Assembly (NCBI RefSeq): GCF_014773545.1
Contig: NZ_SDDV01000010.1
Coordinates: forward strand, 1 to 64,000
DNA from: Hydrogenophaga sp.
GTDB lineage: Bacteria; Pseudomonadota; Gammaproteobacteria; Burkholderiales; Burkholderiaceae_C
Reading direction: 5' to 3'
DNA: 64,000 nucleotides
In this document: positions 32,373-33,890 of the stretch, piece by piece
Position numbering within the stretch: position 1 is the stretch's first letter
How the letters are laid out: every line of letters begins with the position of its first letter
Notes under the pieces: generated by a model
Databases searched by the model: none
What the model was told of the DNA's origin: nothing
Seen by the model: the letters and a program-made list of their open reading frames with translations, nothing else
Translations under genes and position numbers: made by a program

Positions 32373-32930
32373 ATGGCCGCTACCGGACACTCCGAAACGC
32401 TGGACACGCCCGCGCCCGACTTTGCCCTGCCCGGCGTGGACGGGCGCACCTGGACGCTGGCCGACTGCCGTGGCCCGCGCGGGCTGCTGGTGGTGTTCAT
32501 GTGCAACCACTGTCCTTATGTGATGGCAATCAAAGAGCGCCTGGTGCGCGATGCGCGCGAGCTGCAGACGCTAGGCATCGGCGTGGTCGGCATCAACGCC
32601 AACGACCCACTCGCCTACCCGCAAGACTCGTTCGAGCAGATGAAGCTCGTGGCGCGCGACTGGCACCTGCCCTTCCCCTACCTGTTTGACGCCAGCCAGG
32701 AGGTCGCGCGGGCCTATGGCGCGGTTTGCACGCCCGATTTTTTCGGCTTCAATGCCGCCGGCCAGTTGCAATACCGCGGGCGGCTGGACGCTTCGCGCAA
32801 AGAGGCCGCGCCGCCCGACGCGCCGCGCGAATTGTTCGAGGCCATGCAGTGCATTGCCGCCACCGGCAGCGGCCCGCAGACCCAGCACCCCAGCATAGGC
32901 TGCTCGATCAAGTGGCGCCCGAGCTGCTGA
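32373..32930 (+). CDS. Thioredoxin-fold/redoxin family protein
   Basis: PAPDFALPGVDGRTWTLADCRGPRGLLVVFMCNHCPYV...GVCTPDFF-like (GAVCTPDFF). Confidence 0.92.
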   Translation: MAATGHSETLDTPAPDFALPGVDGRTWTLADCRGPRGLLVVFMCNHCPYVMAIKERLVRDARELQTLGIGVVGINANDPLAYPQDSFEQMKLVARDWHLPFPYLFDASQEVARAYGAVCTPDFFGFNAAGQLQYRGRLDASRKEAAPPDAPRELFEAMQCIAATGSGPQTQHPSIGCSIKWRPSC

Positions 32931-32993: not shown

Positions 32994-33158
32994 CTAGTGC
33001 AGTGTTGCGCGCTATCTGGAACATAAAACCGCGTCTTTTCGCCCCTGATGTCGTTGCAAATCCGCGCCATAGTGAAACTATGGCTGTGGTTTGCGCCTAA
33101 TCAGGGTCAAAAATCCATCGGTTTTATTTGTTCCATCAAGCACACAACACTGCACTAG
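32994..33158. mobile_element. MITE-like element, 165 bp, imperfect palindrome
   Basis: Perfect 14-bp terminal inverted repeats CTAGTGCAGTGTTG/CAACACTGCACTAG; sub-terminal GGAACATAAAACCG/CGGTTTTATTTGTTCC; central CCATAGT-gaa-ACTATGG; possible TA duplication inside CTAG. Confidence 0.8.
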
Positions 33159-33387: not shown

Positions 33388-33744
33388 ATGCAAATTCAAG
33401 TCAATACCGACGATCACATCCACGGTGGTGAATCCCTGGCCAAATGGGTCAACGACGAGGCCCTCAGCCGTCTGAGCCGGTTCCGTGACCACATCACCCG
33501 CGTGGAGGTGTTCCTGACCGATCTTGATGGAAGCAAATCTGGCGTGAAAGACAAACGCTGCCGCCTCGAAGCCCGCGTGGCCAACTGCCAACCGGTCAAT
33601 GTCACGGCCGACGGCGACAAGATAGCCACCGCGTTCATTGACGCTGCGGACAAGCTCATCCGGGTCTTGGACGCCGATTTGGGCCGCGTGAAGGACCGCC
33701 ACGGTCGCGACACCATACGCCACGCGGGCGGGCAGGACGACTGA
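33388..33744 (+). CDS. HPF/RaiA family ribosome-associated protein
   Basis: HITRVEVFLTDLDGSKSGVKDKRCRLEARVANCQPVNVTADGDKIATAFIDAADKLIRVLD. Confidence 0.85.
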   Translation: MQIQVNTDDHIHGGESLAKWVNDEALSRLSRFRDHITRVEVFLTDLDGSKSGVKDKRCRLEARVANCQPVNVTADGDKIATAFIDAADKLIRVLDADLGRVKDRHGRDTIRHAGGQDD

Positions 33745-33760
33745 GGCTGAGCGTTTTTCG

Positions 33761-33890
33761 TTCGAACAGATAAGGCTCGTGGCGCGCGACTGACGCCCGC
33801 CCCTCCCCCACCTGTTTGACGCCAGCCAGGAGGTCGCGCGGGCCTATGCAGCGCGCGAATTGTTCGCGGCCATGCGGCGCATGGCCGCAA
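33761..33890 (+). pseudogene. Partial, internally deleted duplicate of the 32373-32930 redoxin gene
   Basis: 33761-33850 matches 32631-32719 with few changes (CACCTGTTTGACGCCAGCCAGGAGGTCGCGCGGGCCTATG...), then jumps to sequence matching about 32821-32865 (CGCGCGAATTGTTCG.GGCCATGC). Confidence 0.9.

What the first reader, a model, noticed from the sequence alone, without database searches (positions are those of the whole stretch)
32994..33158. 165-bp MITE-like palindrome with perfect 14-bp termini
CTAGTGCAGTGTTG...CAACACTGCACTAG with successive inner complementary blocks (33018-33031/33119-33134, 33043-33049/33100-33106, 33056-33060/33090-33094, 33067-33073/33077-33083). Almost the whole element can fold into one cruciform and has no ORF. 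A TA inside the terminal CTAG fits a TA-targeting (IS630/mariner-like) origin.
Basis: partly seen in the sequence, partly recalled or inferred. Interest (0 to 1): 0.65.

Follow-up and report, generated by a model that had tools for sequence, protein, structure and literature searches.

The report
Hairpin MITE with Correia-like core
The 165-base palindrome is a tiny mobile DNA element that borrows the end sequences of an IS630-type jumping gene; its hairpin middle recurs across Proteobacteria fitted with the ends of at least two unrelated transposon families, and it resembles the middle of the well-known Correia repeats of Neisseria.

Summary
The palindrome is real: 32994-33158, perfect 14-bp termini, fold z = -11. 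It is a MITE. The draft genome holds three identical copies in unrelated sites plus seven diverged or partial ones; tested relatives lack it at the two loci examined. Its ends match IS630-family insertion sequences (TA duplicated inside CTAG). Within the same genus, G038 carries an IS630 whose 34-bp end finds, among 128,000 positions of the window, exactly the two MITE ends as its best matches. No IS630 transposase was found in the MITE's own (draft) genome.

The unexpected part is the middle. A ~47-nt hairpin with conserved bulges recurs in palindromes whose ends belong to IS630 (three end types) or IS5 (two end types). It covaries strongly. A model of it hits 62 of 399 Pseudomonadota genomes. 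A model built without Neisseria puts its 13 best hits, in 108 kb of Neisseria-type contigs, on the 13 Correia elements; each hit alone is weak. Changes that leave only a wobble pair strongly favour one strand (50 to 13 distinct events), suggesting that a folded single strand, probably RNA, is what is maintained. Mobilisation by IS630 is inferred, not shown. The core's function is inference.

The parts
32994..33158 (.). 165-bp palindromic MITE, whole element including the CTAG target copies
   Evidence: three identical 165-bp copies with unrelated flanks; fold
32994..33007 (+). left terminal inverted repeat CTAGTGCAGTGTTG
33145..33158 (-). right terminal inverted repeat, perfect
32995..32996 (.). 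TA target-site duplication, left copy, inside CTAG (inferred)
   Evidence: all three identical copies start and end in CTAG in unrelated flanks
33156..33157 (.). TA target-site duplication, right copy (inferred)
   Evidence: as left copy
32994..33027 (+). 34 bp corresponding to the RIGHT end of the partner IS630 (26/34 identical)
   Evidence: IS end from G038
33125..33158 (-). 34 bp corresponding to the LEFT end of an IS630 of the same type (26/34 with Cupriavidus KK10)
33025..33049 (+). inner-arm module 1, left side, shared with B- and D-ended elements
33099..33126 (+). inner-arm module 1, right side
33052..33098 (+). conserved core hairpin CGTTGC...GCGCCT, shared by differently ended elements and by Correia-type elements
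   Evidence: 72 bits, E 2.6e-18 for hit 33044-33106
32373..32930 (+). upstream gene, AhpC/TSA-redoxin family, ends 63 bp before the element
33388..33744 (+). downstream gene, S30AE ribosome-associated factor family

Best explanation
The element is a non-autonomous MITE. SHOWN by sequence: it is repeated, sits in CTAG sites with TA as the apparent duplication, and both ends correspond to the two different ends of an IS630-family insertion sequence. INFERRED: an IS630 transposase, not found in this draft genome but present in a member of the genus, cut and pasted it. SHOWN: its middle 47 nt is a conserved, covarying hairpin with fixed bulges that also occurs inside palindromes with IS5-family ends, so the core is a module separate from the transposase-recognised ends; the core resembles that of Neisseria Correia elements. 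INFERRED: the core is kept because its single strand, read 5'-AGGCGCAAACC...GCAACG-3' (minus strand of the window), folds into a hairpin that a widespread host factor handles, most likely an RNA hairpin bound or processed by RNase III as reported for Correia transcripts, which makes insertions in transcribed spacers tolerable. The lineage persists by acquiring new transposon ends.
For: Repetition: three copies at 100% and seven diverged or partial copies; unrelated flanks with CTAG at both ends; 23 of 67 genus genomes have relatives. Absence from tested relatives at the window locus and the C1 locus. IS630 partner: G038 IS end CTAGTGCAGTGTTCCATTCTGTTTGGAACTTAA, whose two best ungapped matches in the window are positions 32994(+) and 33158(-), 26 and 23 of 34 against 20 for the next; left MITE arm best fits IS right end and vice versa; transposases of this type are NF033545 IS630. 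Constancy: elements chosen only by type-A ends are 165-167 bp (a few to 174) and hold the core in practically every closed pair. Other ends: B = IS630, H = IS630, E and F = IS5. Core covariation: 43 both-side changes against 9.9 in shuffles, 93.6% paired against 32-44% when slid. Correia link: top 13 hits are the 13 Correia elements. Strand preference: 50 against 13 distinct wobble events, p = 3e-6, plus 66 double changes. RNase III and IHF binding of Correia elements: PMC2649163.
Against: No PF13358 match or close type-A transposase in the own genome, though the assembly is a draft of 19 contigs. No base-exact empty site, because spacers in relatives are too diverged. Individual Correia hits are weak (E 0.011-0.23) and a control set gave one hit of 18.1 bits. 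Orientation relative to genes shows no clear bias for types A, B, E and F, which does not favour a role fixed to the upstream transcript. No transcript data. The copies used for the strand test share ancestry, and polarity was taken from majority consensus.
Confidence: 0.72

Rival explanations
1. An ordinary IS630-derived MITE whose core is only common ancestry: all differently ended elements descend from one old palindrome, and the core has no present function.
For: MITEs normally carry IS-end relics plus arbitrary interior. Types A, B and D share inner-arm module 1, and E, F and G share module 2, as descent would give.
Against: The core is better conserved than the arms and ends that must fit a transposase. 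It covaries and keeps the same bulges across families. Correction of imperfect palindromes would have erased fixed mismatches.
Confidence: 0.25
2. The core acts at the DNA level: a cruciform or host-protein site (for example a nucleoid protein) that brings the two ends together for whichever transposase is present.
For: The same core serves IS630- and IS5-type ends. The total length of type-A elements is nearly constant at 165-167 bp. IHF has been proposed for end synapsis in long Correia elements (PMC2649163).
Against: The strand-biased wobble pairs are not expected if both strands are used alike. IHF sites are reported only in the long Correia form.
Confidence: 0.3
3. A conserved non-coding RNA gene or regulatory element of the host at this locus.
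For: Strong fold and an intergenic position between two co-directional genes.
Against: Multi-copy at unrelated loci and absent from the tested loci in relatives. No Rfam match above chance.
Confidence: 0.03

Closest known systems
IS630-family MITEs (for example pneumococcal RUP)
   Same: short, no ORF of its own, long inverted repeats, TA target, ends that match an IS630-family element
   Different: carries a structured core that is shared with elements having IS5-family ends
Correia elements (CREE / NEMIS) of Neisseria
   Same: about 105-160 bp palindrome, TA target, directional conserved core; core architecture GGCGTTGC..CTYGCC..hairpin..CTGCGG..CGCCTTG recovered by a model built without Correia sequences
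   Different: ends CTAGTGCAGTGTTG instead of TATAGYGGATTAA; 165 bp; different stem sequences; reported only from Neisseria so far (PMC2649163)
IS630-family insertion sequences with GTGCAGTGTT-type ends (G038; Cupriavidus, Caballeronia, Variovorax)
   Same: 13 identical terminal bases in G038 and matching subterminal TGGAAC blocks with matching handedness
   Different: encode a ~361-aa transposase; the MITE has none
ERIC / REP-type repeats
   Same: repeated intergenic palindromes
   Different: ends are those of DDE insertion sequences; a relation to ERIC or to REP transposases was not tested

Membership tests
MITE | short, non-coding, terminal inverted repeats | tested here: met
   165 bp, perfect 14-bp ends, no ORF confined to it
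MITE | dispersed multi-copy with lineage-specific insertions | tested here: met
MITE | ends shared with an autonomous IS | tested here: met
IS630-mobilised element | TA duplication, typically in CTAG | tested here: inconclusive
   CTAG at both ends of all three identical copies, but no base-exact empty site; CTAG preference of IS630 is from general knowledge
IS630-mobilised element | matching transposase in the same genome | tested here: not met
   no PF13358 and no type-A transposase in G000; a matching IS is present in G038 of the genus; draft assembly
Correia element (CREE/NEMIS) | terminal repeat TATAG[CT]GGATTAA | tested here: not met
   ends are CTAGTGCAGTGTTG; CREE definition from PMC2649163
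Correia element (CREE/NEMIS) | conserved directional core | tested here: inconclusive
   model R2 without CREE puts its 13 best hits on the 13 complete CREEs, but single hits are weak and one control hit scores 18.1 bits
Correia element (CREE/NEMIS) | RNase III binding or cleavage of transcripts | not testable with these tools
   needs RNA experiments
Rfam RNA families | match above gathering score | tested here: not met
REP (RAYT-associated) | Y1 tyrosine transposase partner | not tested
   partners found are DDE transposases; no search for RAYT was made

The most novel reading that the evidence does not exclude
One ancient, still mobile hairpin module, transcribed and maintained as a folded RNA, has spread through Pseudomonadota by repeatedly changing transposon ends, recruiting IS630 and IS5 transposases in turn; Neisseria Correia elements are one branch of it.
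Probability: 0.35. Interest if true: 0.85.

Novelty: new variant of a known kind. Interest (0 to 1): 0.6.

Why it matters
MITEs are usually treated as broken offspring of one parent IS. Here the same interior travels with the ends of unrelated transposase families, so the interior has to be explained. Correia elements were described as confined to Neisseria, with no known mobiliser (PMC2649163); a wider clan with identifiable IS partners would let both their mobilisation and the role of the core be tested in harmless laboratory bacteria. It also gives a covariance model with which thousands of unannotated repeats could be named.

Tried and rejected
Host RNA gene: rejected (multi-copy, not syntenic, no Rfam match). 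Phage origin: only one viral contig carries the core by exact pattern. The strong bias of C-type elements to follow the upstream gene's direction (15 to 0 and 8 to 0) was first read as evidence for RNA function. It was dropped because those elements insert at asymmetric TGA sites that coincide with stop codons, and CTAG-targeting types show no clear bias. The multi-copy ends in G271 looked like an IS but are MITEs cut by contig ends. The narrow model R1 scored Correia elements only 12-15 bits, which led to the broader R2. A single C-to-T deamination process was considered for the strand bias and rejected, because T-to-C against A-to-G is skewed the same way. Literature searches for the core sequence and for such MITEs in Comamonadaceae or Burkholderia found no description; only open-access text was searched. 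The partner of C and D ends was not found.

Full report
Observation. Termini 32994-33007 and 33145-33158 are perfect 14-bp inverted repeats and every inner block pairs as described. It folds at -82 kcal/mol against -38.9 for shuffles, z = -11.1. It lies between an AhpC/TSA-family gene and an S30AE-family gene, is AT-richer than its surroundings, and its CTAG ends are rare words here (14 against about 203 expected).

It is repeated and mobile. The draft genome (2.21 Mb, 19 contigs) holds two further 100% identical copies and seven diverged or partial ones. The identical copies have unrelated flanks and each begins and ends in CTAG, which fits insertion at C-TA-G with TA duplicated. At the C1 copy the element appears to supply the TAG stop of a conserved gene. 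Relatives in the genus hold that gene, and the gene next to the window copy, without the element. Their spacers are too diverged for a base-exact empty site.

Transposase partner. No IS630 transposase was found in the own genome. A truncated IS end in G340 led through its coding C-terminus to intact IS630-family insertion sequences in Cupriavidus, Caballeronia and Variovorax plasmids (NF033545). In the same genus, G038 carries many copies of such an IS, ending CTAGTGCAGTGTTCCATTCTGTTTGGAACTTAA. Slid along both strands of the 64-kb window, this 34-mer matches best at 32994(+), 26/34, and 33158(-), 23/34; the next best is 20/34. The left MITE arm fits the IS right end better than the left end (26 against 21) and the right arm fits the IS left end better (26 against 23). 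So both different ends are represented, as in a classical internal-deletion MITE.

The core is not IS-derived. BLAST in the genus returned palindromes that share only the middle with the window element. A pattern scan of GTDB genomes found at least 119 stretches, nearly all Burkholderiales, with the same middle inside palindromes of many end types. Ends of type B and type H are those of IS630-family elements. Ends of types E and F are those of IS5-family elements. The pattern scan fixes some positions in advance, so conservation was tested on copies found otherwise. Elements collected only by their type-A ends in 401 family genomes were 165-167 bp long (a few to 174) and held the core in practically every closed pair.

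Structure of the core. On 40 distinct cores from BLAST and end searches, 93.6% of pair cells pair, 9 of 19 pairs show changes on both sides, and 43 cells have both-side changes against 9.9 in shuffles. A conserved bulged T and bulged C and fixed mismatches give the hairpin a direction. A covariance model R1 hit 25 of 399 Pseudomonadota genomes. A broader model R2 from 24 divergent cores (60 both-side changes against 23 in shuffles) hit 62 of 399 at E <= 1e-5, including several non-Burkholderiales families, with only 13 candidates scored per genome. The window hit scores 72 bits.

Relation to Correia elements. The general core, GGCGTTGC..CTYGCC..hairpin..CTGCGG..GCGCCTTG, recalled the inside of Neisseria Correia elements. 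I fetched 13 contigs by a Correia word and read the elements in them. R2, which contains no Correia sequence, placed its 13 best hits in 108 kb on the 13 complete Correia elements (18.6 to 14.1 bits, E 0.011 to 0.23; next hit 11.2). Rescaled to one 105-bp element the best is about 1e-5 (my estimate; model E-values are rough). The copies are not independent and a control set of 100 kb gave one hit of 18.1 bits, so I call the relation probable, not proven. By definition the window element is not a Correia element: its ends differ (PMC2649163).

Which strand matters. The minus strand folds better in 154 of 168 elements, by about 14.5 kcal/mol on average, and the difference lies in the arms of every end type. 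At arm positions paired in the type consensus, distinct single transitions leave a wobble pair on the minus strand 50 times and on the plus strand 13 times (p = 3e-6); 66 distinct changes are double. Both transition classes are skewed (G-to-A 49 against C-to-T 10; T-to-C 22 against A-to-G 4, counts of copies), so one deamination process does not explain it. This points to a folded single strand, RNA or single-stranded DNA. Which one is not settled.

Mechanism. Shown by sequence: repetition, CTAG sites, IS630 ends, shared covarying core, more than one transposase family. Inferred: IS630 transposition in trans, retention of the core because its folded strand is handled by a widespread host factor, and occasional exchange of ends. 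CTAG at the tips lets elements insert into one another's ends (examples in L178 and L367), which would bring different ends next to one core; that route is speculation.

Verdict. The window copy is a new IS630-ended MITE; taken with its relatives it is a new variant of a known kind: a Correia-like hairpin core with interchangeable transposon ends.

Noticed in passing
window 33758-33888: A decayed partial repeat of the AhpC/TSA gene (32628-32723 and 32797-32860; 90% and 80% identical) lies just after the S30AE gene.
   Followed up: partly
L178 (left flank of its core); L367 near 1291: A D-ended MITE sits directly on the CTAG tip of an A-type end, and an IS630 with CTAGTGGACTGTAACG ends sits on the CTAG tip of a B-type end: elements insert into each other's tips.
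   Followed up: partly
L052-L058, L066-L068 and C/C2-ended loci among L089-L196: C-ended elements insert so that the duplicated TGA is the stop codon of the upstream gene, nearly always in one orientation.
   Followed up: partly
L240, L241, L243, L244, L245, L361-L363: Contigs end inside or just past these palindromes or IS ends, so draft assemblies undercount both the MITEs and their partner IS.
   Followed up: no
L300-L305, L310, L312-L315 (mostly family f39), L338, L341, L342, L345 (family f15): Core-bearing repeats in other Pseudomonadota families, some with IS5-like GGAAGCTCTGAACAAGTC ends, others with no clear transposon end found.
   Followed up: partly
L367 near 1291; L321-L332: The IS630 end CTAGTGGACTGTAACG resembles the Correia tip TATAGTGGATTAAC, a lead for the unknown mobiliser of Correia elements.
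   Followed up: no
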